Positions 3,410 to 61,948 of a stretch of 62,819 nucleotides of DNA are shown piece after piece. Both the position numbers and the translations under genes were made by a program. Numbering within the stretch: the stretch's first letter is position 1; the number at the start of each line of letters is the position of its first letter. Where the stretch lies: contig NZ_JAHDIG010000019.1 of assembly GCF_020630935.1 (NCBI RefSeq), positions 1-62,819 on the forward strand. Reading direction: 5' to 3'. A model generated the notes under the pieces. The model saw only the letters and a program-made list of their open reading frames with translations, made no database searches and was not told the origin of the DNA. Source of the DNA: Bernardetia sp. (GTDB taxonomy: Bacteria > Bacteroidota > Bacteroidia > Cytophagales > Bernardetiaceae).

Positions 3410-4462
3410 ATGAAAAATCTAATTTTATCTACTTTCTTCATGATATTTTTGGTTTCCTGTCAAACAGAAAACATAAACCCAAAAGAAGAATTTGGTTTCC
3501 AACAACCGAGCAACTTTCCTCCTCCTGTCTATGATTTGTCGGAAAACCCTATAACAGTAGAAGGATTTGAACTAGGCAAAAAATTATTTTATACTGGACT
3601 TTTGTCAAGGGATGGGACAGTAAGTTGTGGTTCTTGTCATCAACAAACTTCTAGTTTTACGCAGCACGGACACAGCCTAAGCCATGGCATAGACGACCAA
3701 CTTACGATGAGAAACTCACAACCAATTCAAAATTTGGCTTGGTCTAAAAGTTTTTTTTGGGACGGTGGTGTTTTTCATTTAGATTTATTTGCTCCTGTTC
3801 CTATTGAAGCCGATAATGAGATGGGTGAAACATTGCCAAATGTTTTGCAAAAACTAAGAGAAACAGAAGGTGCTAAATCTCCCAAAACAGATTATCCACT
3901 GCTTTTTGAAAAGGCTTTCGGAACAAAAGAAATCACGACTGCTAATTTTTTAAAGGCATTATCACAGTTTCAACTCATGTGTATTTCATCAAATTCTCGT
4001 TACGACAAACACATTAGAAATGAAAGTACAGACGAAAATAAACTCACTGCTCAAGAACTAAAAGGTTTAGAACTCTTCAATCAGAAATGTGCGACCTGCC
4101 ACACTACGGAGCTTTTCACAGACTATTCCTTTAGAAATAATGGTTTGCCTATTGGAAATCCGAATGATGAAGGACGTTTTTTGATTACACAACTAGAAGA
4201 AGACAAATTTAAGTTTAAAGTACCCAGTCTTAGAAATGTAGAAGTTACTCGTCCGTATATGCACGATGGTAGGTTTAGAAATTTGGAAGCTGTTTTAGAC
4301 CATTATGCTGATGGAATTGTAGATTCTGAAACACTAGACCCAATTTTGAAGAAAAATTTGAAAATAGAATTGAACGAAGACGAGAAAAAAAACATAATAG
4401 CTTTTTTAAAAACACTTACCGATGAGGAATTTTTGAATAATCCTCTTTTATCTGAATTTTAA
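3410..4462 (+). CDS. Diheme cytochrome c peroxidase/MauG-family protein (MbnH-like)
   Basis: The 350-residue lipoprotein (SPII Cys17 in LVSC) has two CxxCH heme sites, CGSCH at 73-77 and CATCH near 226, and the conserved RNSQPIQNLAWSKSFFWDGG and VPSLRNVEVTRPYMHDGRF segments of the di-heme peroxidase/MauG superfamily. It lies 64 bp after the MbnP-like gene. In the MbnPH pair the diheme enzyme oxidises a tryptophan of its partner. An ordinary hydrogen-peroxide-reducing peroxidase is the alternative, but the partner gene and the adjacent outer-membrane protein favour the MbnH role. Confidence 0.88.
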   Translation: MKNLILSTFFMIFLVSCQTENINPKEEFGFQQPSNFPPPVYDLSENPITVEGFELGKKLFYTGLLSRDGTVSCGSCHQQTSSFTQHGHSLSHGIDDQLTMRNSQPIQNLAWSKSFFWDGGVFHLDLFAPVPIEADNEMGETLPNVLQKLRETEGAKSPKTDYPLLFEKAFGTKEITTANFLKALSQFQLMCISSNSRYDKHIRNESTDENKLTAQELKGLELFNQKCATCHTTELFTDYSFRNNGLPIGNPNDEGRFLITQLEEDKFKFKVPSLRNVEVTRPYMHDGRFRNLEAVLDHYADGIVDSETLDPILKKNLKIELNEDEKKNIIAFLKTLTDEEFLNNPLLSEF

Positions 4463-4465
4463 CCA

Positions 4466-4490
4466 TCAACGAGCTTAAAAGCGTCGTTGA
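4466..4490. repeat. Short dyad with TCAACGA/TCGTTGA arms
   Basis: TCAACGA (4466-4472) and TCGTTGA (4484-4490) flank an inner GCTT/AAGC pair. The arms recur in opposite order at 58366-58390, suggesting a dispersed intergenic repeat. It lies between two cluster genes and could also shape mRNA ends. Confidence 0.45.
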
Positions 4491-4505
4491 GGAAATTGCA
4501 CAACA

Positions 4506-5435
4506 ATGAAAAATCTTATTACCGTTTTACTTCTTATAAACTCCTTTTTATTCATATCATATTCCTCACAAGCCTGTGATTTGTGTGGGTGTGGTGCAGG
4601 AAGTTATTATTTGGGTGTGATGCCACAGTTTCAAAAAAACTTTATGGGTGTGCGTTATCGCCAAGCTAGTTTTGATTCTCACTTAGGAGGAACTGGAAAT
4701 TATTCAGACCTTTTCCGAACACAAGAGCGTTTTTATGCTACCGAAATTTGGGCAAGATATTATCCCACCCCAAAACTACAACTTTTGGCTTTTTTGCCTT
4801 ACCAATGGAATTTTCAAGATGAAAGAGGCAATACAAAATCGCTTCATGGCATGGCTGATGCTTCTTTGATTGCTCAATATGAGATTTTAAATACCACAAC
4901 AGATACTATTTCTCAAATCTTTGAACACAATTTTTTGATAGGTGGAGGCATAAAATTACCTACTGGAAAATCAAACTTCGACGAGGAAGATGTCTTGCAA
5001 GTCGCTAATCCTAATTTTCAACTTGGCACAGGCAGTACAGATTTTCTTTTGACGACTCAATATACTCTTCGTTATAGAAATGTAGGTTTTACAGCCGATG
5101 CTTCTTATAAAATCAATACAAAAAACAACGAAAATTATCGTTTTGGAAATCGTTTTAGTAGTAATGCTACACTTTTCTATGTCAAGCAAATTGGAAAATT
5201 TGGTTTTATGCCAACCTTAGGAACATACTATGAATACAATCAAAAAGACCAGAGAGAAAATACTATTGTTTTTGATACAGGAGGAAATCTTCTAAATGCC
5301 GTTTTTGGAACGCAAATTTATACTGGACGTTTTATGGTAGGAATAAATTATCAAAAACCAATTTCTCAAAATTTGGCTAACAAAAAAATCAAATCAAGAG
5401 ATAGATTTATGATTCAGACGGCTTTTTTGTTTTGA
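4506..5435 (+). CDS. Outer-membrane channel-like protein of the MbnP/MbnH cluster
   Basis: The 309-residue product has a cleavable signal ending SSQA and a mature N-terminus CDLCGCGAGSYYLG, a cysteine cluster that could bind metal. The rest alternates polar and hydrophobic residues with aromatic girdle patterns and ends in FLF, typical of an outer-membrane beta-barrel. It follows the diheme gene by 43 bp and is probably cotranscribed. Similar barrel proteins accompany MbnP/MbnH-like genes in Bacteroidota; passage or sensing of metal is inferred. No TonB-dependent receptor is present in the cluster. Confidence 0.6.
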   Translation: MKNLITVLLLINSFLFISYSSQACDLCGCGAGSYYLGVMPQFQKNFMGVRYRQASFDSHLGGTGNYSDLFRTQERFYATEIWARYYPTPKLQLLAFLPYQWNFQDERGNTKSLHGMADASLIAQYEILNTTTDTISQIFEHNFLIGGGIKLPTGKSNFDEEDVLQVANPNFQLGTGSTDFLLTTQYTLRYRNVGFTADASYKINTKNNENYRFGNRFSSNATLFYVKQIGKFGFMPTLGTYYEYNQKDQRENTIVFDTGGNLLNAVFGTQIYTGRFMVGINYQKPISQNLANKKIKSRDRFMIQTAFLF

Positions 5436-5455
5436 GTATAAATTAAACCAATTCA

Positions 5456-5797
5456 ATGAATCCAAAAAAAAGAACAGAGTGGCTTATAAAAAATACGGAA
5501 GAAATTTATCAGAAAGCAGAACAGTGGAAAGACAAGGAGATAAAAGCAAGTATTTCTCTAACAGATAGAGATTTTGACCGACATGGAACGAGCAATACTT
5601 CTTTTTTATTTATGCTAAAGTCATTTTCTCTACGAATAAGTGGAGCAAGAATGATGTTTTGGGGAACAAAAGACGAACTCATAGAAATAGCTACTGATTT
5701 TCTTGTAGAAATAACTTTAGAAGAATCTAAAATTACTTTCTTAGAAGATTTGGGTAATAAATGGTATAAAAAAGTGATTTTAGAAAAACAGGAGTAA
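5456..5797 (+). CDS. Conserved-looking hypothetical cytosolic protein
   Basis: A 113-residue protein without signal peptide or membrane helix. It has a charged first half (WLIKNTEEIYQKAEQWKDKE) and a mixed alpha/beta second half containing MMFWGTKDELIEIATDFL and a repeated Glu-rich end. I do not recognise a family. It begins 20 bp after the barrel gene, so cotranscription is possible, but its content does not suggest metal handling. Confidence 0.6.
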   Translation: MNPKKRTEWLIKNTEEIYQKAEQWKDKEIKASISLTDRDFDRHGTSNTSFLFMLKSFSLRISGARMMFWGTKDELIEIATDFLVEITLEESKITFLEDLGNKWYKKVILEKQE

Positions 5798-6065
5798 CTT
5801 GTTGATAATTTACTAAATCTTATCACAGTTCTTTATGTAGTTCAAACTTTTAGTCTAACGACAAAGATTAAAAAGAATTTATTTCATTTAAAAACTTAGT
5901 TTTTGATTTTACAGACTATTCTGGAGGACTGGTGTATAAAATTAACCGTGATAATTTGTACTTTTCAAAATATTTTCATCTTGCAAAATATATTTGGTTA
6001 GATTCAAACAAAATGTTTTGTAAATTGTAGTGTACTAATTACAAACTACTCTGATAAGACTATTT

Positions 6066-8414
6066 ATGAAGAATTATCTTCCATTTTTTAAAACAATAGC
6101 GCAAAAAATATGGTCTGTTTTCGGTTTTCCAAAAGGAGAATCTAAGCTAATACGCTTCTGTCGTGTGCTTTGGTGGCTTACCATAACAGGACTTTCAAGT
6201 ATCATTTTATTGTTCGTTGCCATAATTTTCAACTGGTTTGGTTTTTTTGGAGAAATTCCTTCTCTAAAAGCCTTAGAAAATCCTAAAACGCCTATGCCAT
6301 CGGTGGTTTATACATCAGATAGTGTAGAAGTAGTGCGTTATTATAGCCGAAACAAAACGCCACTCAAGTACGAACAGATAGATTCGATGACTATTTTGGC
6401 TCTTCTAGCGACTGAAGATGCTCGTTTTGAAAGGCATTCAGGCATTGATGCAAAAGCTACGTTTTCCATTTTTTGGTATCTTTTGAAAGGAAATAACAGA
6501 GGAGGCAGCACCCTAAGTCAGCAACTTGCTAAAAATATGTTTGATACTCGTTCCAAAGAAAATACTGGTAAATTGGCAGGCAAAGGCAAAATCAGTACTA
6601 TCATAGCAAAGGCAAAAGAATGGGTTATGGCAGTTCGTTTAGAACGTTCTTATACTAAAAAAGAAATCCTTAATATGTATCTGAATGAAGTAGCTTTCGG
6701 AAATAATGCCATCGGACTTCATGCAGCAGCAAGAAAATATTTTTCTACTTCCCCTGATAGCTTGGAGGTACATCAGTCGGCTCTGCTTGTGGGACTTTTA
6801 AAAGCTCCTTCTACGTACAACCCTCTAAGAAATCCAGAAAAGGCTATCAAAAGAAGAAATACAGTGCTGAATCAGATGGAAAAATATAAATATATTTCTT
6901 CAAAAGAAGCGTCCTCTCTGAAAGAGTTACCCTTAGATTTAGATATTTCGTACGAAGTAGCTGAAACAGGAACAAGTACTTATTACAAGAATTTTGTTAC
7001 ACAAAAACTCAAAAAATGGTGTGAGCAAAATGGATATGACCTTTATGCCGATGGGTTGGAAATTTATCTTACCATAGATTCCAAAATTCAAGCTCATGCA
7101 GAGGCTGCCATAGCTAGACAAATGCCTATTCTGCAAGATAAATTTTATGAGCAATGGAAAGGTTTAGTTCCGTGGACAAATAGTGATAAAGAACCTATCG
7201 AAAATTACATTGAAAATGCTGTTGCTAAAACAGATTATTATAAGTTTTTGGTAGAAAAATATGGAAAACAGAGTGATTCTGTTCAAATTTTATTAGAAAA
7301 GCCTAAAAAAATGACTGTCTTTACTTGGGCTACAGAAAACCATAGAACAGATACTACACTCTCTACCATAGATTCGGTAAAATACTACAAGCAAATTTTG
7401 AGGTCAGGCTTGGTTTCACTAGACCCCTACACAGGACATATAAAAGCGTGGGTAGGAGGAATCGATTTCGAATATTTTAAATATGACCAAGTACGACAGG
7501 CAAAAAGACAACCAGGTTCTACCTTTAAAATGTTTGTCTATGCTGCTGCGATTGATTCATTGAATATGTCACCTTGTGATACTATCTTGGATACAAATCC
7601 TATCATCAGATATGAAGAAAATGGAGAGCAAAAAGTTTGGACACCTCATAATGCAGACTGGACAAATACTTACCGATATATGACACTTCGACATGCTATG
7701 GGACGCTCTATTAATACGGTTACAGCGAAGCTAACTGAAAAAGTAGGTTGGACAACAGTAGCACACTACGCAAAAAAAATGGGAATAGAATCTAAGTTAG
7801 CAGAAGTTCCTTCTATCGGATTAGGTTCTAGTGATGTATCTCTTTTCGAAATGGTGGGGGCATATTCAACCATTATGAATGCTGGAATGTGGCAAGAACC
7901 ACAAATTTTATGGCACGTAAAAGACAAACACGGTAAAATATTGAATTATTTCTACAACGACTCTCATCGTGCTTTGTCTAAAGAATCGGCTTGGCTAATG
8001 AGTTATATGCTTAAAGGAGGAACACAAGAACCTTATGGAACATCACTTGCTTTATGGTCGTATGGCGTTTTGGGAAATGGAAATGATATAGGAGGAAAGA
8101 CAGGAACATCTTCCAACTTTGCTGATGGCTGGTATATGGGAGTTACAAAAGACTTAGTTACTGGGGTTTGGGTAGGTGGAGACGATAAAGCTATTCGCTT
8201 CCGAACCTCTAGTGTGGGAGAAGGTTCTAAAACGGCACTTCCTATCTTTGGAGTTTACCTCAAAAGCCTTTATGAAGATAAAAATACAGGTATCAGAAGA
8301 GGAAAATTTTTGCCTCCCACAGTAGAAGTACAACGTTCTTATTATTGCCCTACTCCAAAATATGACCGTTATCCAGAAAAGGATAGTACGGATGTAGAGG
8401 AAGTTATTGAGTAA
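6066..8414 (+). CDS. Class A penicillin-binding protein (PBP1A-type glycosyltransferase/transpeptidase)
   Basis: This 782-residue bifunctional murein synthase has a short cytosolic N-terminus, one membrane anchor (about residues 38-58), a GT51 domain with the catalytic ATEDARF motif (Glu117) and GGSTLSQQLAKN, and a transpeptidase domain with GSTFK (active Ser near 485), SINT and KTGTSS. It polymerises lipid II and cross-links peptidoglycan outside the inner membrane. Length is normal. The ATG at 6066 gives a natural N-terminus. It stands alone, followed closely by unrelated membrane genes. Confidence 0.96.
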   Translation: MKNYLPFFKTIAQKIWSVFGFPKGESKLIRFCRVLWWLTITGLSSIILLFVAIIFNWFGFFGEIPSLKALENPKTPMPSVVYTSDSVEVVRYYSRNKTPLKYEQIDSMTILALLATEDARFERHSGIDAKATFSIFWYLLKGNNRGGSTLSQQLAKNMFDTRSKENTGKLAGKGKISTIIAKAKEWVMAVRLERSYTKKEILNMYLNEVAFGNNAIGLHAAARKYFSTSPDSLEVHQSALLVGLLKAPSTYNPLRNPEKAIKRRNTVLNQMEKYKYISSKEASSLKELPLDLDISYEVAETGTSTYYKNFVTQKLKKWCEQNGYDLYADGLEIYLTIDSKIQAHAEAAIARQMPILQDKFYEQWKGLVPWTNSDKEPIENYIENAVAKTDYYKFLVEKYGKQSDSVQILLEKPKKMTVFTWATENHRTDTTLSTIDSVKYYKQILRSGLVSLDPYTGHIKAWVGGIDFEYFKYDQVRQAKRQPGSTFKMFVYAAAIDSLNMSPCDTILDTNPIIRYEENGEQKVWTPHNADWTNTYRYMTLRHAMGRSINTVTAKLTEKVGWTTVAHYAKKMGIESKLAEVPSIGLGSSDVSLFEMVGAYSTIMNAGMWQEPQILWHVKDKHGKILNYFYNDSHRALSKESAWLMSYMLKGGTQEPYGTSLALWSYGVLGNGNDIGGKTGTSSNFADGWYMGVTKDLVTGVWVGGDDKAIRFRTSSVGEGSKTALPIFGVYLKSLYEDKNTGIRRGKFLPPTVEVQRSYYCPTPKYDRYPEKDSTDVEEVIE

Positions 8415-8425
8415 ATTTTAATTTT

Positions 8426-8839
8426 ATGCAAGGAACATACAGATTAAAATTAGGTTGGTTAATATTTATTGGAGCAGGTAGTTTACTACTTTTATACCTA
8501 TATTTTGTAGGAGTTTTCATGATTTATGAAAGTAGAGAGTTATATAATCTAACTGATTTTATAGTGTTTTTTATATTCTCACTCCCTTTATTAGCTTTAG
8601 GAACAGCAGGAGTTATTGAGCTTTTTTATGCAAAAATTGTAATTGAAAAAGATAGAATCTACTCAAAAGGAATTTTGAATAATCACTCATTTACTTTTGA
8701 TAAAATTACAGGAGTAAAGAGAACGATTCATTATGTCCATATCTTTTCGGGGCAAGAACATATAGATATATCTAAATATGTAAAAGATGTTGATAAAATA
8801 TATAATTGGTCAAGCAATAAATTCAAAAAAATTAGATAA
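8426..8839 (+). CDS. Truncated paralogue of the 8895 membrane protein
   Basis: The 137 residues have two membrane helices (about 10-32 and 42-65), then a PH-like soluble segment (KIVIEKDRIYSKG ... FTFDKITGVKR ... VDKIYNWSSNKF). The same order occurs in the first ~145 residues of the next gene (GTYKL, two helices, FSFDEIRGFR, IDKIRNWVHRSF), so the two are tandem duplicates. This copy stops where the paralogue continues for another 270 residues, and a remnant of the lost C-terminus remains downstream at 8849-8881. It may still make a stable N-terminal module. Function unknown. Confidence 0.6.
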   Translation: MQGTYRLKLGWLIFIGAGSLLLLYLYFVGVFMIYESRELYNLTDFIVFFIFSLPLLALGTAGVIELFYAKIVIEKDRIYSKGILNNHSFTFDKITGVKRTIHYVHIFSGQEHIDISKYVKDVDKIYNWSSNKFKKIR

Positions 8840-8848
8840 ATACTGTAA

Positions 8849-8881
8849 AAGATAGGTATTCCTTGGCTAATGCCTAATTAA
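8849..8881 (+). pseudogene. Remnant C-terminus of the duplicated membrane gene
   Basis: The frame at 8849-8881 reads KIGIPWLMPN followed by TAA, while the intact paralogue ends KLGIPWLIPN and stop (10130). The nucleotide match is obvious despite the stop codon at 8837-8839 in the upstream frame. An internal deletion of roughly 800 bp in the first copy explains both the short ORF and this leftover. Confidence 0.75.
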
Positions 8882-8894
8882 AAACTAAGACGAT

Positions 8895-10130
8895 ATGCAA
8901 GATATAGAAGGCACTTATAAATTAGTTAAAAAGGCAAGTCAACAGAGTTTAATAATAGGTTTAGTTGGTATACTTTTGAGTATCACCCCATATTTTTTTC
9001 TGATTAGAGCAGAGCTTTTGGAAGCTGCTCTATATTTATCTTTTTTTCTAATTCCATTTTTGATTTTAGGTTTAGTAGTAACAATACACCCTTTTATTTA
9101 TCAAGTTACAATAACAGAAAAATCTATTTCTTTAAAACTACCAACTAAAAAACGCTCGTTTTCTTTTGATGAAATAAGAGGGTTTAGAACAAGTCCAGGC
9201 TATATCTATATTTACTCTAAGAGAAAGAAAATAGCCATTTCTGCATATACTGAAGGTATTGATAAGATACGTAACTGGGTACATCGAAGCTTCGTGAACT
9301 TAGATGCACTACCACAAGAGGAAAATGATTTTGCAGGAAAGTTTAATGCTTTTTTCGACAGGCATTTTTCGAATCTTGATAATGAAGAGAACACTGATAT
9401 TTCTTTAGCTTCATATCAAAAGCAGCTAAGTAGAGCCAAATACGTCACTAAGATATATAATATTATATGTGTCATTTGTATTATTTGGTTGTTCTTATAC
9501 CCTTATATTGGCAACTCTTCTTTTTTTGCTGATACTTTTTTTGATAGTTATAAAAATGCTTTTATTTCAATAGTTGTACTCATTATAACAGGTATAATTC
9601 TTCCTAAGATATCAAATGGATTTATTAAGTATTCCAATAAAGAAGATAACAAACCCTACGTAAGTAGTATGTTTTTACCATTGGGGGCAGTTTTAACTTT
9701 GAGAGTTTTACTTGATATAAACCTACTAGGCTATTCTACTATACTTCTTTACAGTGGCATGATAGGATTACTATTAACTATAACCGTCATGACAAGCAAA
9801 GAATTTAATGTTAAGCAATTAAAGACTTACTTACAAGGAGTATTTTTTCTGTTCTCATTTACCATTTTTGGATATGGAACAATAGGTATAGGTAATTTTT
9901 TATATGATGAGTCAATGCCAAAGATATATAGGGCTAAAATTATAAAAAGAGAAATGTATTCTGGAAAAGTAATCACATATAATTTGAGAGTAGAAAAGTG
10001 GCACGAAACTTTTTCCAACGATAGAATAAATATCTCAAGAAATAAGTATCGAGAGTTAGAAGGTGAAGATAGTGTTACAATTTATCTAAAAGAGGGCAAG
10101 TTGGGTATTCCTTGGCTTATTCCTAACTAA
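8895..10130 (+). CDS. Multi-pass membrane protein with PH-like domain, intact paralogue
   Basis: A 411-residue protein: two N-terminal helices (about 18-68), a PH-like beta-rich soluble domain (about 74-140), a linker, then four or five further helices (about 180-345) and a final soluble beta segment (AKIIKREMYSGKVITYNLRVEKW) ending GIPWLIPN. The architecture resembles Bacteroidota proteins with bacterial PH-like domains fused to membrane bundles; no enzyme motif is visible. It starts 14 bp after the remnant of its duplicated neighbour. Confidence 0.6.
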   Translation: MQDIEGTYKLVKKASQQSLIIGLVGILLSITPYFFLIRAELLEAALYLSFFLIPFLILGLVVTIHPFIYQVTITEKSISLKLPTKKRSFSFDEIRGFRTSPGYIYIYSKRKKIAISAYTEGIDKIRNWVHRSFVNLDALPQEENDFAGKFNAFFDRHFSNLDNEENTDISLASYQKQLSRAKYVTKIYNIICVICIIWLFLYPYIGNSSFFADTFFDSYKNAFISIVVLIITGIILPKISNGFIKYSNKEDNKPYVSSMFLPLGAVLTLRVLLDINLLGYSTILLYSGMIGLLLTITVMTSKEFNVKQLKTYLQGVFFLFSFTIFGYGTIGIGNFLYDESMPKIYRAKIIKREMYSGKVITYNLRVEKWHETFSNDRINISRNKYRELEGEDSVTIYLKEGKLGIPWLIPN

Positions 10131-10168
10131 CTTTTTAAAAACCTAGACCCTTTTGAGGATACTCCTTT

Positions 10169-10208
10169 TCTTCGTAGTGTTGGATTTATAAACCCAACGC
10201 TACGAAGA
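10169..10208. terminator. Hairpin between convergent genes
   Basis: TCTTCGTAGTGTTGG (10169-10183) pairs with CCAACGCTACGAAGA (10194-10208) with one G-T wobble and a 10-nt loop. It lies between the convergent genes ending at 10130 and 10284 and probably stops transcription from both sides, although the T-run is weak. Confidence 0.5.
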
Positions 10209-10283
10209 GACAAGTAGAGTTTGATTAACTAAACTGTCAATAGGCAGAATTGTAAAAAACTGTGATAGCCTTTAATTTTTAAT

Positions 10284-11357
10284 TTATTTCCAACTCACTT
10301 CATCAAAAATGATAACAGCTTTTTCTTGGTTTTCGCCTAGTTTTGAAAGGTTGAGAGTATCTTCTTTGAATGTTCCCCAATCTTTTAGTGTTTGTGCCAT
10401 CTCTACGTCTGTGCGAACAGGATATTCCATTTCTTCTCTTACATAGACTTCTTGTGCTTCTTTGCTTGTCAAAAACTCAATCAGTTTGATAGCATTTTCT
10501 TTATTAGGTGCATATTTGGTTACAGCTGCTCCACTTACGTTGATATGTGTTCCTCTTCCATCTTGATTTGGGAAAATAACAGCTACTTTTTTTGCTGCAT
10601 TTACGTTGGCTTCATCTGTATCGTTGAGCATTTGAGCAAAGTAATAGGTGTTTGTTACAGCAAGTGTTCCTTCTCCTGCTGCAATGGCTTTGATTTGGTC
10701 ACGGTCGCCTCCTTTTGGCTCTCTTGCCATATTTGTGACTACACCAGTAGCCCATTTTTTAGCTGTTCCTTCATCCGAATTGGCAATAACTGAAGCTAAA
10801 AGCGACTGGTTGTACACATTGCTAGATGAACGGATAAGTAGTTTTCCTTTAGCTTTTGCATCAGCAAGACTCTCATAAGTAGAAAAGTCTTCTGGCTTTA
10901 CTTTTTCTTTATCATAAACAATAACTCTAGCACGCTTTGTAATGCCAAACCACTGATTATCTGCATCTCTCAAGTGAGCAGGAATATTTGTAAACAAAAC
11001 TTCTGATTCAATCGGCTGTAAAAGGTCTTTTGCTTTAGCTCTATGCAAACGCCCAGCATCTACAGTTATCAGAATATCAGCAGGTGAATTTTGTCCTTCC
11101 ATTTCTAGTTTGTTGATAAGCTCATCAGCCGAAGCCTTCACAACATTTACTTTAATGCCTGTTTGTTTTTCAAACTCTTCAAAAAGATTTTTATCAGACT
11201 CATAATGACGATGCGAATATACATTTACTTCCTTCACTTCTTCTGCTACAGTAGTAGAGTCAGTAGTTGTTTCTGCATTATCTTTTTTATTGCCATTGCA
11301 AGAGAAAAATGAAAGAGACAGGATAAATAAAATAGCACTTAAAAAAATACGGTTCAT
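10284..11357 (-). CDS. Iron(III) ABC transporter substrate-binding lipoprotein (FutA/FbpA-like)
   Basis: A 357-residue lipoprotein (SPII Cys20 in SFFSC) with the ferric-binding-protein fold: VNVYSHRHYESDKNLFEEFEKQTG at the start, ADILITVDAGRLHRAK, and the NTYYFAQ segment carrying adjacent tyrosines that bind Fe(III) in this family. No permease or ATPase gene is adjacent. A 17-bp near-palindrome just upstream of its ATG (11384-11400) resembles one near an AraC gene at 22286, consistent with Fur-type iron control (inference). Confidence 0.88.
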   Translation of the reverse strand: MNRIFLSAILFILSLSFFSCNGNKKDNAETTTDSTTVAEEVKEVNVYSHRHYESDKNLFEEFEKQTGIKVNVVKASADELINKLEMEGQNSPADILITVDAGRLHRAKAKDLLQPIESEVLFTNIPAHLRDADNQWFGITKRARVIVYDKEKVKPEDFSTYESLADAKAKGKLLIRSSSNVYNQSLLASVIANSDEGTAKKWATGVVTNMAREPKGGDRDQIKAIAAGEGTLAVTNTYYFAQMLNDTDEANVNAAKKVAVIFPNQDGRGTHINVSGAAVTKYAPNKENAIKLIEFLTSKEAQEVYVREEMEYPVRTDVEMAQTLKDWGTFKEDTLNLSKLGENQEKAVIIFDEVSWK

Positions 11358-11383
11358 AATTTAGAAATTAATTGTTGTTCTTA

Positions 11384-11400
11384 TTTAGAATCATTTTAAA
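11384..11400. promoter_or_regulatory. Candidate Fur box upstream of the iron-binding protein
   Basis: TTTAGAAT, C, ATTTTAAA is a 17-bp dyad with one mismatch, 27 bp before the start codon of the iron-binding protein. The same core TAGAATCATTCTA occurs perfectly at 22286-22298. Assignment to Fur is by context. Confidence 0.45.
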
Positions 11401-11535
11401 CAATGCAAAGATAGTAATTAGATTTAGATTTGCCTTGTCTGATTTATTTTTTTGAAAAAATTAGTAACTAAACAATATGAGTATAGGGAAGTTGAATCAA
11501 TACACAATTTTTTAACCTAAAGCCACTTTTTAGAT

Positions 11536-12657
11536 ATGCAAGACAAAAATATAGACAAAGAACCAAAGCGTATTCAGTTTTATCTCAACAACGAACTCAA
11601 TCCTTTAGAAGATGCCAAAATTAGAGATGATATTTCATCAGTTGTCAGAACAGGAAAAAATATTTGGATTGGTTTTGATGAGAGCTTAGGATTGGAACGC
11701 TTAGAGCTTGTTACTTTTGGAGAGAAACAGAGTTTTAGAAAGCACACTCATTTTCCATTAGAAGATTATATTGATTTGACAGACGATAGTGAAGTGGACA
11801 TTGAAGGTTTGGCGTATGACAATTATTATCTTTGGGTAACAGGCTCACAGAGTAAAAAACGCAATGATGTAGATAAAGAAGATGACCTAAAAGAACAGAT
11901 AGACGACCTTACCGAACTCAAATACGATTACAATAGATACACGCTTGCTAGAATCCCTTGTGTTCCCAATAAAGAAACTGGAGACTGGGAACTTCACAAA
12001 GAAATTCAGCATCCAAAAAATGAAGATATTACGCTTAGAGCTGCCAAACTAAAAGGAGGAAAGAAACATACACAGCTTTCTAAAAAGTTGGGTAAAGACA
12101 AGCACTTTAAGGAATTTATGGATTTGCCTTGTAAGGAAAACGGTTTTGATATTGAAGGGTTGGCAGTAGATGGAGAGCGTATTTTTCTAGGAATGCGAGG
12201 TCCTGTATTGAGAGGTTGGGCAACTATTATTGAAATTGCTGTCAAGGAAACCAAAAAAGGAAAGCTAAAGCTCAAAAAAATAGGAGAAGAAAAAGATGGA
12301 AAGACAATGAAGTATCGCAAACACTTCCTAGACCTCAAAGGAATGGGAATTAGAGAACTTTGTTTGCAAACGAACGATTTGCTCATCTTGGGAGGTCCTA
12401 CAATGGATTTGGATGGAACAATTTCTTTATACAGAATAAAAAATGGTTTGGAAGATGCCAGTTATTCTATTAACCCTGATGTAGAACGTGTTTTTGATGT
12501 AGCCAAAGGCGCAGAAATAGAACGAGGCAAAGACAAAGCAGAGGGAATTACACCTATGGCAAATGGCGATTTGCTTATTGTTTATGATGCACCAAAAGAC
12601 GACCGTCTGATTGGAGAATCTAATATAGAGATGGATATTTTTCCATATCAAAATTGA
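11536..12657 (+). CDS. DUF3616 domain protein
   Basis: The 373-residue cytosolic protein has the DUF3616 pattern of paired VDIEGLAYDNYYLWVTGSQSKKR and GFDIEGLAVDGERIFLGMRGPVLRG repeats, as in beta-propeller-like folds, and a C-terminal AEGITPMANGDLLIVYDAP blade. Homologues are uncharacterised; the fold suggests a ligand or protein binding role. The start at ATG 11536 gives the expected N-terminus. It precedes the ATPase/nuclease pair by 61 bp on the same strand; whether it is linked to it is unknown. Confidence 0.8.
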   Translation: MQDKNIDKEPKRIQFYLNNELNPLEDAKIRDDISSVVRTGKNIWIGFDESLGLERLELVTFGEKQSFRKHTHFPLEDYIDLTDDSEVDIEGLAYDNYYLWVTGSQSKKRNDVDKEDDLKEQIDDLTELKYDYNRYTLARIPCVPNKETGDWELHKEIQHPKNEDITLRAAKLKGGKKHTQLSKKLGKDKHFKEFMDLPCKENGFDIEGLAVDGERIFLGMRGPVLRGWATIIEIAVKETKKGKLKLKKIGEEKDGKTMKYRKHFLDLKGMGIRELCLQTNDLLILGGPTMDLDGTISLYRIKNGLEDASYSINPDVERVFDVAKGAEIERGKDKAEGITPMANGDLLIVYDAPKDDRLIGESNIEMDIFPYQN

Positions 12658-35834: not shown

Positions 35835-35926
35835 CTATGAAATATAGTTGTGCTTGTAAAGTAAATTTATAAAAGAAACGAGTATAGCCTAAGACTTAGC
35901 TTCCGTTTTAAAAAGTAGATAGATTC

Positions 35927-35962
35927 GCCAGTCTCATACACTGGCACTCTGATAGGTCGGAG
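35927..35962 (+). ncRNA. Unit 1 CAU anticodon-arm-like hairpin plus second hairpin
   Basis: GCCAGT (35927-35932), loop CTCATAC and ACTGGC (35940-35945) form a 6-bp stem with a 7-nt loop containing CAU at the anticodon position. It is followed by CTCTGA, TAGG, TCGGAG (35947-35962). Units 2 and 3 have the same pair at 36415-36450 and 36906-36941; unit 3 changes the loop to TTCATAG and one pair C-G to U-G. Confidence 0.6.
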
Positions 35963-36046
35963 CATAATTTATTTGCTATTAGTTTAAGTTTTTCGCTCGT
36001 AGTGTAAGTCTGATAGCATTTTTAAAAATGCAGAGGGTTGGTATAT

Positions 36047-36134
36047 ATGACTTAGTGCAGAAGTTCGAATCTTCTCGCCTCCACAAATATAAACTCAAAC
36101 TGGGGGCGTAGCTCAGTGGCAGAGCAAGAGTTAT
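36047..36134 (+). ncRNA. Permuted tRNA-like body, unit 1
   Basis: The 3' half comes first: ATGACT (36047-36052), variable TAGTGC, T-arm AGAAG, TTCGAAT, CTTCT (36059-36075), acceptor CGCCTCC and discriminator A (36083). After an 18-nt linker comes the 5' half: acceptor GGGGGCG (36102-36108), UA, D-arm GCTC, AGTGGCA, GAGC (36111-36125), then AGTTAT (36129-36134). GGGGGCG pairs with CGCCTCC, and AGTTAT pairs with ATGACT, so the missing anticodon loop would be open at both gene ends. Tertiary residues U8, G18-G19, T54-T55-C56 and A58 are all present. CCA is not encoded. This is the order of a circularly permuted tRNA. Confidence 0.75.
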
Positions 36135-36193
36135 GATGTTAGTAAATCGTCTGTATGATTTTTAAAAATGAGTAGTTATAGAATACTACAACC

Positions 36194-36267
36194 AATGAAA
36201 TAGCCGAAGTGGATTAGGCGTTTGGCTCATAACCAAAAGTATGTGGGTTCGAATCCCACTTTCATTA
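36194..36267 (+). tRNA. tRNA-like gene with CAU anticodon, unit 1
   Basis: 74 nt: acceptor AATGAAA (36194-36200) with TTTCATT and discriminator A; D-arm GCC/GGC with an 11-nt loop containing GG; anticodon arm TTTGG, CTCATAA, CCAAA; variable AGTAT; T-arm GTGGG, TTCGAAT, CCCAC. The anticodon is CAU (36228-36230), which would be Met or lysidine-modified Ile. The D-arm with AGCC...GGC resembles tRNA-Gln more than tRNA-Met. No CCA is encoded, as in other Bacteroidota tRNAs. Confidence 0.8.
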
Positions 36268-36268
36268 C

Positions 36269-36306
36269 GGGCAGGCACATAGGTTAGGTGTCTGTCCATT
36301 TTTTTT
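36269..36306 (+). terminator. Terminator of unit 1
   Basis: GGGCAGGCAC (36269-36278) pairs fully with GTGTCTGTCC (36288-36297) using two G-U pairs, followed by a T8 run. The stem starts two bases after the tRNA end. Confidence 0.9.
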
Positions 36307-36414
36307 GTAAATTGAAAATAATATATAACGAACTCTTTAGAGTGATAACGTGAAATATAAAAGAAATGAGTATAGCCTAAGACTTAGCTTTCGTTTTAAA
36401 AAGTAGATAGGTTC

Positions 36415-36450
36415 GCCAGTCTCATACACTGGCACTCTGATTGGTCAGAG
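36415..36450 (+). ncRNA. Unit 2 CAU anticodon-arm-like hairpin plus second hairpin
   Basis: GCCAGT (36415-36420), loop CTCATAC, ACTGGC (36428-36433), then CTCTGA, TTGG, TCAGAG (36435-36450). The second stem is fully Watson-Crick here, while unit 1 has a U-G pair in it. Confidence 0.6.
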
Positions 36451-36535
36451 CATAATTTATTTGCTATCAGTTTAAGTTTTTTGCTCATAGTGTAAGTGTA
36501 ATAGCATTTTTATATCGTTCTAATTATTGGTATAT

Positions 36536-36623
36536 ATGACCCAGTGCAGAAGTTCGAATCTTCTCGCCTCCACAAATACAAATTCAAACTGGGGGCGTAG
36601 CTCAGTGGCAGAGCAAAGGTCAT
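36536..36623 (+). ncRNA. Permuted tRNA-like body, unit 2
   Basis: Same order as unit 1: ATGACC (36536-36541), CAGTGC, T-arm (36548-36564), acceptor CGCCTCC and A (36572), an 18-nt linker, GGGGGCG (36591-36597), D-arm (36600-36614), then GGTCAT (36618-36623). Compared with unit 1, AGTTAT/ATGACT has become GGTCAT/ATGACC: A-U to G-C at the first pair (both bases changed) and U-G to C-G at the fourth. This covariation pairs the downstream half with the upstream half of the same unit, not with its neighbours. Confidence 0.75.
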
Positions 36624-36661
36624 TTGACGTGAGTAGATAATTAAAAAAACTATAAAAATGA

Positions 36662-36682
36662 GTAATGACTAACAATCATTAC
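36662..36682 (+). ncRNA. Covarying hairpin between the two tRNA-like parts, unit 2
   Basis: GTAATGA, loop CTAACAA, TCATTAC forms a 7-bp, 7-nt-loop arm shaped like an anticodon arm. The counterparts are GTAGT/ACTAC at 36172-36189 (unit 1) and GTAATGC/GCGTTAC at 37155-37175 (unit 3); A-U to G-C and A-U to C-G changes are compensated. Confidence 0.65.
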
Positions 36683-36686
36683 AGCC

Positions 36687-36758
36687 AATGAAATAGCCAA
36701 GAGGTTAGGCGTTGGGCTCAAGACCCGAAAGACGTGGGTTCGAATCCCACTTTCATTA
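36687..36758 (+). tRNA. tRNA-like gene with CAA anticodon but short variable loop, unit 2
   Basis: 72 nt: acceptor AATGAAA/TTTCATT with A; D-arm GCC/GGC; anticodon arm TTGGG, CTCAAGA, CCCGA; variable AAGAC; T-arm GTGGG, TTCGAAT, CCCAC. The anticodon CAA (36719-36721) would read UUG leucine, yet tRNA-Leu normally has a long variable arm and this one has 5 nt. The D-arm is tRNA-Gln-like. Identity is therefore unclear; it may be a relative of the unit-1 gene with an altered anticodon arm. Confidence 0.75.
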
Positions 36759-36759
36759 C

Positions 36760-36796
36760 GGGCGGGTACATAGGTTAGGTGTCTGTCCATTTTTTT
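36760..36796 (+). terminator. Terminator of unit 2
   Basis: GGGCGGGTAC (36760-36769) pairs with GTGTCTGTCC (36779-36788) through several wobble pairs and is followed by a T8 run. Confidence 0.88.
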
Positions 36797-36905
36797 TGTA
36801 AATTAGAAAAAATATAGCTCACTCTTTAAAGTGAGTAAATTAAAATATAAAAGAAAATGAGTATAGCCTAAGACTTAGATTTCGTTTTAAAAAGTAGATA
36901 AATTT

Positions 36906-36941
36906 GCTAGTTTCATAGACTGGCACTCTGATTGGTCAGAG
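36906..36941 (+). ncRNA. Unit 3 CAU anticodon-arm-like hairpin plus second hairpin
   Basis: GCTAGT (36906-36911), loop TTCATAG, ACTGGC (36919-36924), then CTCTGA, TTGG, TCAGAG (36926-36941). CAU is retained at the anticodon position although the loop ends differ from units 1 and 2. Confidence 0.6.
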
Positions 36942-37027
36942 CATAATTTATTTGCTATCAGTTTAAGTTTTTTGCTCATAGTGTAAGTCTAAATGTATTT
37001 TTATGTTGTTTTTGATTACTGATTGTG

Positions 37028-37117
37028 TGACCTAGCGCAGAAGTTCGAATCTTCTCGCCTCCACAACAAATATAAACTCAAATTGGGGGCGTAGCTCAGT
37101 GGCAGAGCAAGGGTCAT
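37028..37117 (+). ncRNA. Permuted tRNA-like body, unit 3
   Basis: TGACC (37028-37032), TAGCGC, T-arm (37039-37055), acceptor CGCCTCC and A (37063), a 21-nt linker, GGGGGCG (37085-37091), D-arm (37094-37108), then GGTCA (37112-37116). Acceptor, D- and T-arm sequences are identical to units 1 and 2, while linker and variable positions differ. The 5-bp stem GGTCA/TGACC is intact. Confidence 0.72.
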
Positions 37118-37179
37118 CTGTTGTAAATAGGTAATAAGAGACAGATGAAAATACGTAATGCTTAAGAAGCGTTACATCC

Positions 37180-37263
37180 AACAATATGGCGAAACTTGGA
37201 AAACGCGCTTGAATGCAGGGTCAAGTGCCGAAAGGCTTGTGGGTTCGATTCCCACTATTGTTA
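37180..37263 (+). tRNA. Class II tRNA-like gene with an 8-nt anticodon loop, unit 3
   Basis: 84 nt: acceptor AACAATA/TATTGTT with A (three compensated pair changes relative to units 1 and 2), D-arm GCG/CGC with a 12-nt loop containing GG, anticodon stem CTTGA/TCAAG with loop ATGCAGGG, long variable arm TGCC, GAAA, GGC, T-arm GTGGG, TTCGATT, CCCAC. The long variable arm and D-arm look like tRNA-Leu, but the anticodon loop has eight nucleotides; reading after U33 gives GCA, not a Leu anticodon. Either a degraded tRNA or a tRNA-like RNA. Confidence 0.7.
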
Positions 37264-37264
37264 C

Positions 37265-37301
37265 GGACAGGCACATAGGTTAGGTGTCTGTCCATTTTTT
37301 T
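37265..37301 (+). terminator. Terminator of unit 3
   Basis: GGACAGGCAC (37265-37274) pairs with GTGTCTGTCC (37284-37293) with one G-U pair, followed by a T7 run. It is the best of the three stems. Confidence 0.9.
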
Positions 37302-37337
37302 ATATGTGTGAAAGTTTGAATTCGTCTTAAAAAATAT

Positions 37338-60155: not shown

Positions 60156-60208
60156 AAAAAAATGGACAGACACCTCACCTATGTGCCTGTCCGTAATGAA
60201 AGTGGGAT
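60156..60208 (-). mobile_element. Probable attachment-site copy: end of a tRNA-like unit, inverted
   Basis: This 53-bp block is the reverse complement of the end of an array unit: terminator stem (GGACAGACAC, 60164-60173; GTGCCTGTCC, 60183-60192), T-run, acceptor TTTCATT with A, and the T-stem CCCAC, ending exactly inside the T-loop at 60208. It matches unit 1 at 51 of 53 positions. Beyond 60208 the similarity stops abruptly. Breaks in the T-arm/acceptor of a tRNA are the usual crossover of tyrosine-recombinase elements, so this is probably attL (or attR) of an element extending rightward. Confidence 0.65.
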
Positions 60209-61841: not shown

Positions 61842-61948
61842 GCTAGGTTAGTATAGTGGTAGTACGTTGGTGTCAGCCTTCAATTTGGGACACAAGAAAA
61901 ATCCTAATTAAGCAGCCAGAAACAGGAGTTCGAATCTCCTACCTAGTT
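61842..61948 (+). tRNA. tRNA-like gene with 34 extra nucleotides in the anticodon region
   Basis: Acceptor GCTAGGT (61842-61848) pairs with ACCTAGT (61941-61947, one G-U pair), UA, D-arm GTAT, AGTGGTA, GTAC (61851-61865), T-arm AGGAG, TTCGAAT, CTCCT (61924-61940). Between the D- and T-arms lie 58 nt instead of about 23. TTGG (61867-61870) can pair with CCAG (61916-61919), with GTCA where an Asp anticodon would be and an inserted 34-nt-scale segment after it. It may be an Asp-type tRNA with an insertion or a tRNA-like RNA. No CCA is encoded, and T is the discriminator. Confidence 0.6.

What the first reader, a model, noticed from the sequence alone, without database searches (positions are those of the whole stretch)
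35876..37301. Three tandem units with a circularly permuted tRNA body: a candidate undescribed RNA system
In each unit the tRNA 3' half (T-arm AGAAG/CTTCT, acceptor CGCCTCC, discriminator A) lies upstream of the 5' half (acceptor GGGGGCG, D-arm GCTC/GAGC), joined by an 18-21-nt linker. The halves fold: acceptor 7 bp, and an anticodon-stem equivalent that covaries (AGTTAT/ATGACT in unit 1, GGTCAT/ATGACC in unit 2, GGTCA/TGACC in unit 3), pairing within a unit rather than between units. Residues needed for the tRNA fold are intact. Each unit also has a CAU-loop hairpin upstream and a linear tRNA-like gene and terminator downstream. Permuted tRNA genes are known from some algae and archaea and permuted tmRNA from some bacteria; I know of no bacterial permuted tRNA. 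It could be a split tRNA-like or tmRNA-like acceptor RNA, a nuclease decoy, or decayed tRNA copies.
Basis: partly seen in the sequence, partly recalled or inferred. Interest (0 to 1): 0.96.

Follow-up and report, generated by a model that had tools for sequence, protein, structure and literature searches.

The report
Phage-linked RNA with permuted tRNAs
The window holds three copies of an undescribed bacterial RNA that contains a tRNA with its two halves swapped, and RNAs of this kind sit beside one uncharacterised protein gene in many phages and bacteria, which points to a new RNA-protein system built on tRNA mimicry.

Summary
Each of three units (35868-36307, 36356-36798, 36847-37302) carries a tRNA body encoded 3' half first. 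A fourth copy elsewhere in the genome keeps the fold with a different acceptor stem. Related units occur in Cytophagales (Bernardetiaceae/Microscillaceae-type genomes). It is not tmRNA (six congeners have canonical tmRNA) and fails Rfam's YrlA and permuted-tmRNA thresholds. Its partner is DUF7873: 22 of 23 genomes with the RNA (60 bits or more) encode it, against 9 of 367 others. In phages the RNA lies behind the DUF7873 gene: 77 of 84 IMG/VR loci carry a strict permuted body downstream, against 3 of 84 upstream and 0 of 84 shuffled. 43 loci have two bodies; 120 bodies show 101 distinct acceptor pairs. Junctions carry tRNA-processing signals: C74 in 106/120 viral and 35/35 Cytophagales bodies, CCA in 38/120 and 4/35, U at -1 in 68/119 and 30/35; in viral bodies U-1 is as common where it cannot pair with N73. 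Best reading: RNase P and 3' maturation cut the junctions, leaving a multi-piece tRNA-mimic RNA held by DUF7873, working somewhat like Ro60-Y RNA. The module is well supported, processing inferred, function a guess.

The parts
35868..36307 (+). Unit 1, whole
   Evidence: direct repeat family and 86% match to unit 2; ends read by eye
36356..36798 (+). Unit 2, whole
   Evidence: ends read by eye
36847..37302 (+). Unit 3, whole
   Evidence: 81% match to unit 2; ends read by eye
35878..35883 (+). Unit 1 helix P1, 5' strand ACGAGT, followed by 5' box TATAGCCTAAGACTTAG
   Evidence: covaries with 35995-36000 across 26 units
35995..36000 (+). Unit 1 helix P1, 3' strand GCTCGT, inside the conserved mid box
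36366..36371 (+). Unit 2 P1 5' strand ATGAGT
36483..36488 (+). Unit 2 P1 3' strand GCTCAT
36857..36862 (+). Unit 3 P1 5' strand ATGAGT
36974..36979 (+). Unit 3 P1 3' strand GCTCAT
36047..36134 (+). Unit 1 permuted tRNA body: anticodon-stem 3' strand 36047-36052, T-arm 36059-36075, acceptor 3' strand 36076-36082, A73 36083, C74 36084, linker, acceptor 5' strand 36102-36108, D-arm 36111-36125, anticodon-stem 5' strand 36129-36134
   Evidence: CM R1 100.6 bits (this unit is in the model)
36535..36623 (+). Unit 2 permuted tRNA body: T-arm 36548-36564, acceptor 3' 36565-36571, A73 36572, acceptor 5' 36591-36597
   Evidence: 101.4 bits; in the model
37026..37117 (+). Unit 3 permuted tRNA body: T-arm 37039-37055, acceptor 3' 37056-37062, A73 37063, acceptor 5' 37085-37091
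   Evidence: 101.7 bits; in the model
36194..36268 (+). Unit 1 linear tRNA, anticodon CAT
   Evidence: ARAGORN, Rfam 65.5 bits
36687..36759 (+). Unit 2 linear tRNA, anticodon CAA
   Evidence: ARAGORN, Rfam 66.8 bits
37180..37264 (+). Unit 3 linear tRNA, long variable arm, 8-nt anticodon loop
   Evidence: ARAGORN, Rfam 44.2 bits
36269..36307 (+). Unit 1 terminator hairpin plus T run; loop AGGTTAG
   Evidence: read from sequence; loop AGGNTAG in 19 of 24 units printed, by eye
36760..36798 (+). Unit 2 terminator hairpin plus T run
37264..37302 (+). Unit 3 terminator hairpin plus T run

Best explanation
Each unit encodes one structured RNA of about 440 nt belonging to a new family of DUF7873-associated RNAs. 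SHOWN by comparison: the RNA has a 5' domain (helix P1, 5' box, mid box), one permuted tRNA body whose anticodon stem opens into the rest of the RNA, then in window-type units a linear tRNA and a terminator; RNAs with one or two such permuted bodies lie just behind the DUF7873 gene in diverse phages and on plasmids. INFERRED: the acceptor ends are processed like those of ordinary tRNAs. RNase P cuts before the acceptor 5' strand and 3' maturation leaves or adds CCA on the 3' strand, so the mature RNA is two or more pieces held together by the tRNA fold, as in two-piece tmRNA; RNase P at the linear tRNA sets the downstream end. GUESS: DUF7873 binds the 5' domain, and the particle uses its tRNA mimics to engage tRNA-handling enzymes, most simply as a decoy, inhibitor or repair platform during tRNA damage. 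That would parallel the Ro60-Y RNA particle, and explain why many phage loci sit in tRNA clusters.
For: Fold: covariation of the permuted body; P1 read in 26 of 35 units, 94.2% paired against at most 80.1% in 2000 strand exchanges (strands chosen by hand). Partner: 22 of 23 RNA genomes have DUF7873 against 9 of 367 others, and in 6 of those 9 a body directly follows the gene. Phages: 12 of 14 fetched phage/plasmid records and 77 of 84 IMG/VR loci have fully paired bodies behind the gene; upstream 3 of 84, shuffled 0 of 84, reverse strand 0 of 84. Kinship of viral and Cytophagales RNAs: the model from Cytophagales finds viral bodies with up to 51.8 bits, and the mid box recurs in 33 of 77 viral loci. 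Pairing not used for selection: anticodon-stem helix of 5 or more pairs in 73 of 120 viral bodies, at most 30 when strands are exchanged. Processing: C74 106/120 and 35/35, CCA 38/120 and 4/35, U-1 68/119 against 24% in linkers and 30/35 against 33%; U-1 is 49 of 76 where N73 is not A and 19 of 43 where it is A; ordinary tRNAs in the same loci have U-1 in 99 of 215. Linkers vary from 0 to 89 nt in strict viral bodies, reach 221 nt (L190), and in L214 contain an ORF (by eye).
Against: No transcript, cleavage or binding data. C74 and U-1 could have another structural reason. The P1 strands were picked by eye. 17 of the 35 Cytophagales units come from one genus, so 35/35 and 30/35 are not independent counts, nor are the genomes behind the co-occurrence. 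In Cytophagales the anticodon-stem test is weak (21 of 35 against up to 21 in exchanges). The mid-box pattern is missed in 44 of 77 viral loci. Only 13 of 32 Cytophagales DUF7873 genes examined have a strict body next door; in the window genome gene and RNA lie on different contigs. Three DUF7873 genomes (G124, G141, G185) have no RNA found by me, and one RNA genome (G169) no DUF7873. DUF7873 has no convincing structural relative, so RNA binding has no support from its fold.
Confidence: 0.6

Rival explanations
1. It is a divergent YrlA Y RNA: an uncut tRNA mimic whose acceptor is closed by a loop, bound by Ro60 (Rsr).
For: YrlA aligns end to end to unit 1 with 32.1 bits; the genome has a Ro60 gene.
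Against: Gathering score is 69, though this genome's own Y-RNA-type modules also stay below it (43.5 bits at best), so the score alone is weak evidence. The Ro60 gene sits beside its own modules on another contig, whose six permuted bodies show the signals less: C74 in 3 of 6, U-1 in 2 of 6. The gene neighbour and co-occurring protein of the window family is DUF7873.
Confidence: 0.12
2. It is a permuted tmRNA or tmRNA-derived RNA with a tag reading frame.
For: RF04321 matches the T-arm/acceptor/linker with 26.7 bits at best; the window acceptor has G3:U70; the own genome shows no tmRNA over threshold but has SmpB.
Against: Gathering score 47 not reached; all six congeners and 55 of 59 genomes searched have canonical tmRNA; full D-arm; G3:U70 in only 3 of 120 viral and 12 of 35 Cytophagales bodies; no conserved tag frame seen by eye.
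Confidence: 0.04
3. The tRNA mimics are pure decoys that soak up tRNA nucleases without any processing or protein partner role; DUF7873 merely travels with them.
For: Phage loci are often inside tRNA clusters; phage tRNAs are reported to evade tRNA-targeting defences (titles and starts of abstracts of PMC10264068 and PMC11555353).
Against: No anticodon loop is formed in the permuted bodies, so anticodon nucleases would not find their site there; the fixed gene-RNA order in phages argues for a joint function.
Confidence: 0.15
4. Decayed or rearranged tandem tRNA genes.
For: Tandem identical tRNAs gave matches to the same model, for example L121 and L122.
Against: 101 distinct fully paired acceptors among 120 bodies, 1 of 120 T-arms assigned by ARAGORN to a linear tRNA, conserved flanking boxes.
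Confidence: 0.01

Closest known systems
YrlA bacterial Y RNA / Ro60 (Rsr) particle (Rfam RF02553)
   Same: RNA domain with T-arm and acceptor 3' strand before acceptor 5' strand and D-arm; protein partner gene nearby; tRNA mimicry
   Different: Different protein (DUF7873), different 5' domain, C74/CCA and U-1 at the junction, long variable linkers, up to two bodies and often a linear tRNA per RNA
Permuted (two-piece) tmRNA (RF04321, RF01850)
   Same: Gene order 3' half, intervening segment, 5' half; probable end processing into pieces
   Different: Complete D-arm, no tag frame seen, coexists with canonical tmRNA in congeners, below gathering score
Circularly permuted tRNA genes of algae and Thermofilum
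   Different: Those are circularised and end as translating tRNAs (same passages); here no anticodon loop is formed and the rest of the RNA occupies its place
Phage tRNA clusters as counter-defence
   Same: Genomic setting of many DUF7873 loci
   Different: Permuted, unannotated in the records fetched, tied to one protein gene

Membership tests
YrlA Y RNA | Rfam RF02553 gathering score 69 bits | tested here: not met
   32.1 and 26.2 bits in units 1 and 3; no row for unit 2
YrlA Y RNA | tRNA-like body with joined acceptor strands | tested here: met
YrlA Y RNA | Ro60-binding stem and Ro60 gene as neighbour | tested here: not met
   the GTGTCGTAG...CTTGTTACC frame of the C1 modules is absent from the units by eye; the two window genes flanking the array are a Por_Secre_tail and a GDSL protein; not all window ORFs were scanned
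YrlA Y RNA | Physical binding to Ro60 | not testable with these tools
   needs pull-down
Permuted tmRNA | Rfam RF04321 gathering score 47 bits | tested here: not met
   26.1-26.7 bits
Permuted tmRNA | Only tmRNA of its genome | tested here: not met
   canonical tmRNA in G001-G006 beside the RNA; own genome inconclusive
Permuted tmRNA | Tag reading frame | tested here: inconclusive
   looked for by eye only; the one candidate stretch overlaps helix P1
Permuted tRNA gene | Halves can be joined to a tRNA with anticodon loop | tested here: not met
   the anticodon position is filled by the rest of the RNA
Permuted tRNA gene | BHB motif at the junction | not tested
   no BHB search was run
DUF7873 (PF25283) | partner protein over the curated cut-off of 27 bits | tested here: met
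   275.5 bits in the window genome

The most novel reading that the evidence does not exclude
A mobile RNA-protein system: DUF7873 holds an RNA that RNase P and 3' maturation cut at one or two permuted tRNA bodies, giving a nicked, multi-tRNA-shaped particle with free CCA ends, which phages and some bacteria use to blind, inhibit or repair after tRNA-attacking enzymes.
Probability: 0.3. Interest if true: 0.96.

Novelty: categorically new. Interest (0 to 1): 0.9.

Why it matters
It would be an RNA-protein system shared by phages and bacteria that appears to be unannotated: the protein is 'hypothetical' or unannotated in the phage records listed, and the paper library searched holds no mention of DUF7873. 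It would show that swapped tRNA halves are a recurring bacterial and viral RNA design, not a curiosity of algae and archaea, and it gives a concrete test of whether tRNA-processing enzymes build multi-piece RNAs other than tmRNA. The shape alone is not new (YrlA); the pairing with DUF7873, the processed-end signals and the phage spread are.

Tried and rejected
tmRNA replacement: first suspected because the own genome lacks a tmRNA match over threshold and has SmpB; dropped. A tag-like frame ending GTG TAA in the mid box: dropped, since it lies in helix P1. Pairing between the 5' box and the terminator loop AGGTTAG: possible in many units by eye but failing in others (L056, L106, L111); not claimed.

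The order-wide CM count (211 of 390 genomes at E up to 1e-6) is not a family count: it includes tandem identical tRNAs and YrlA-like loci. I set the line at 60 bits after seeing the list (23 genomes) and dropped G191 (60.3 bits; no downstream tRNA, YrlA-like); with G191 kept, 22 of 24 have DUF7873. G125's match (73.5 bits) was not confirmed by my own finder (locus L112). Several weaker bodies listed (for example L130, L132, L133, L140) were not classified.
Full report
CHECK OF THE OBSERVATION. The sequence shows three tandem units of about 490 bp. In each, a T-arm and the acceptor 3' strand with discriminator A come before the acceptor 5' strand and a complete D-arm, joined by 18, 18 and 21 nt. 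The acceptor pairs 7 of 7. ARAGORN and Rfam at gathering level see only the linear tRNAs. A fourth copy at G000:C15:1419-1849 has different acceptor and T-stem sequences that still pair. Of six congeners searched, five (G001-G004, G006) show two tandem copies and G005 one.

COVARIATION. Sixteen bodies from several families give 96.9% standard cells and 15 of 22 pairs changing on both sides; no shuffle of 500 reaches either, and sliding the 3' strands by 1-3 columns gives 38-46% paired. The D-stem never varies and says nothing. T-stem and acceptor pairing were used to find most of these sequences, so the anticodon stem is the fair test: 5 of its 6 pairs change on both sides. In viral bodies the anticodon stem, not used for selection, has at least 5 contiguous pairs in 73 of 120 bodies, against a mean of 19 and a maximum of 30 when strands are exchanged between bodies. 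In Cytophagales the same test is weak (21 of 35; exchanges mean 12.3, up to 21), partly because those sequences are related.

THE WHOLE RNA. The 24 units printed share, by eye, the order: 5' box, mid box, body, spacer, linear tRNA, terminator. With 11 further congener units (35 in all; near-duplicates such as L103 and L124 left out), 30 of 35 match the mid-box pattern upstream of the body. A helix P1 joins the nucleotides before the 5' box to those of the mid box; in unit 1 ACGAGT/GCTCGT and in unit 2 ATGAGT/GCTCAT, in L089 ATGGAAC/GTTCCAT. Over 26 hand-read units, 94.2% of cells pair and 41 cells change on both sides, against maxima of 80.1% and 24 in 2000 exchanges (nine congener units were left out, and hand reading favours pairing). 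The linear tRNA changes identity freely: Leu, Ile, Gly, Val, Met, Arg and odd loops, Asp by eye. In 22 other tRNA loci of the window genome given to ARAGORN there are ordinary Met(CAT), Ile(GAT), Leu(TAA) and Leu(GAG) genes, but no Leu(CAA). In L185 the second tRNA is itself permuted (by eye).

THE PARTNER GENE. In several families the gene just upstream of the RNA is DUF7873. A search of 390 order members found it in 31 genomes. Of 23 genomes with the RNA at 60 bits or more (line set after seeing the list, G191 dropped as YrlA-like), 22 have DUF7873; of the other 367, 9 do (Fisher p 9e-28; genomes are related, so this p overstates). In 6 of those 9 (G032, G047, G058, G067, G085, G136) a fully paired body directly follows the gene. 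The one RNA genome without it, G169, is 79% complete. Adjacency by the strict filter holds in 13 of 32 genes examined; of 35 matches three were not examined, and in one of these, G152, the RNA lies directly behind the gene fragment. In a phylum sample of 296 genomes only the window's own has the gene.

PHAGES AND PLASMIDS. tblastn finds DUF7873 in 88 of 50,697 phage records and 4 of 72,556 plasmid records. Of 14 fetched records, 12 carry fully paired permuted bodies in the 900 nt after the gene; a Microcoleus phage (which has a HEARO element there) and a Prevotella Lak phage do not. Several loci lie inside tRNA clusters. From IMG/VR, four productive scans gave 101 loci, 88 after removing near-duplicates, 84 with at least 400 nt downstream. 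A strict body (5/5 T-stem, 7/7 acceptor, D-arm, linker up to 130) lies within 900 nt downstream in 77, in the 900 nt upstream in 3, in shuffled sequence in 0, on the other strand in 0. Of the 7 misses, four (L208, L210, L214, L308) show a body by eye; L295, L297 and L304 show none. 43 loci have two bodies, 34 one. There are 101 distinct acceptor pairs among 120 bodies, and a linear tRNA follows within 350 nt in 30 of 77 loci, so the linear tRNA is not universal. The scan that gave most loci kept only the best 80 of 245. The link between viral and Cytophagales RNAs rests on the shared partner, the CM matches (up to 51.8 bits) and the mid box, found in 33 of 77 viral loci with bodies (shuffled 5 of 84).

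PROCESSING SIGNALS. The base after the discriminator is C in 106 of 120 viral and 35 of 35 Cytophagales bodies; 38 and 4 spell CCA. The base before the acceptor 5' strand is U in 68 of 119 viral bodies (linker background 24%) and 30 of 35 Cytophagales bodies (33%). An extended stem U-1:A73 could explain the latter, but in viral bodies U-1 is 49 of 76 when N73 is U or G and 19 of 43 when it is A. Ordinary tRNAs in those loci have U-1 in 99 of 215. The six permuted bodies of the Y-RNA modules in the window genome have C74 in 3 and U-1 in 2. Seventeen of the 35 Cytophagales units are from one genus. A preference of bacterial RNase P for U-1 is recalled, not from a call. Linker length is loose, up to 221 nt in L190, and the L214 linker holds a reading frame (by eye), as expected if the linker is removed or idle.

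WHAT IT IS NOT. Rfam at gathering level gives only linear tRNAs for the window and eight relatives' loci. Weak matches are YrlA, 32.1 bits against 69, and permuted tmRNA, 26.7 against 47. The genome has a Ro60 (TROVE) gene, followed by about ten Y-RNA-type modules, themselves below the YrlA threshold, and a T4-Rnl2-type RNA ligase on contig C1. Congeners carry canonical tmRNA.

MECHANISM. Shown: a conserved gene-RNA module with permuted tRNA bodies. Inferred: RNase P and 3' maturation cut the junctions, giving pieces held by the tRNA fold. Guessed: DUF7873 binds the 5' domain, and the particle engages tRNA-handling or tRNA-damaging enzymes. The comparison with Ro60-Y RNA is one of working principle, not membership; for YrlA, competitive inhibition of an anticodon nuclease has been suggested (passage in PMC7790460). 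The DUF7873 model is fairly confident (pLDDT 84.0, pTM 0.71: helical hairpins with a beta region), but no solved structure resembles it by sequence (best E 0.16) or convincingly by fold.

PRINT. Searches for YrlA with Ro60, permuted tRNA with bacteria or phage, tRNA-like noncoding RNA in jumbo phages, DUF7873, and phage tRNA with anticodon nuclease list no title or abstract describing this RNA or protein. I saw listings, and passages of PMC7824862, PMC10085705, PMC7790460, PMC8058203, PMC12803027, PMC5733544 and PMC3978253. The library holds only open-licence PMC papers, and two Wolin-group papers on bacterial Y RNAs were not held.

NAMES. The taxon names come from record titles (Microscillaceae, Cytophagales). 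Bernardetiaceae for the window genome is my inference from genome size and kinship, not a call.

Noticed in passing
L078 (G000:C1:22000-36000), 3843-8444: Ro60/TROVE gene, then about ten Y-RNA-type modules (GTGTCGTAG...CTTGTTACC), six with permuted tRNA bodies of different acceptor sequence, then an Rnl2-type RNA ligase: a large Y-RNA array whose modules stay below Rfam's YrlA threshold (best 43.5 bits).
   Followed up: partly
L080 1312-1437 minus, L081 1051-1170 minus, window 61842-61948: tRNA genes with inserts of about 43-52 nt at the anticodon region; the tRNA-Lys and tRNA-Val inserts share GGTCAA...TTACTTCT. Shorter than the self-splicing tRNA introns of bacteria (recalled).
   Followed up: no
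window 60156-60208, minus strand: Lone fragment of a unit's linear tRNA 3' end plus terminator, 92% identical; looks like an attachment-site remnant.
   Followed up: no
L008 about 200-1220 minus: Gene with an integrase-type arm DNA-binding domain (22.7 bits, cut-off 22.6) beside the 3' end of unit 4's tRNA, suggesting that these tRNAs serve as integration sites.
   Followed up: partly
L214, downstream of DUF7873: The linker between the two halves of the permuted tRNA contains a small reading frame of about 55 codons (by eye).
   Followed up: no
L188 and L190 downstream of DUF7873: Linkers grown to 167 and 221 nt by repeat-like inserts while the acceptor halves still pair.
   Followed up: partly
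L185 (G054:C104), after DUF7873: Second tRNA of the RNA is also permuted and Leu-like, instead of linear (by eye).
   Followed up: no
L202 3348-3557: HEARO RNA (129.1 bits) shortly after DUF7873 in a Microcoleus phage, where other loci have the permuted RNA.
   Followed up: no
L200 563-1091: tmRNA (89 bits) inside the tRNA cluster of Gordonia phage Phendrix, with no feature listed there.
   Followed up: no
window about 36815-36838 and L009 about 1650-1680: Short palindromic element like AGCTCACTCTTTAGAGTGAG recurring between units and elsewhere in the genome.
   Followed up: no
L175 (G001) 7376-11900: DUF7873 sits beside two genes whose homologues lie next to the RNA array in the window, hinting that gene and RNA were once adjacent in this genus.
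   Followed up: partly
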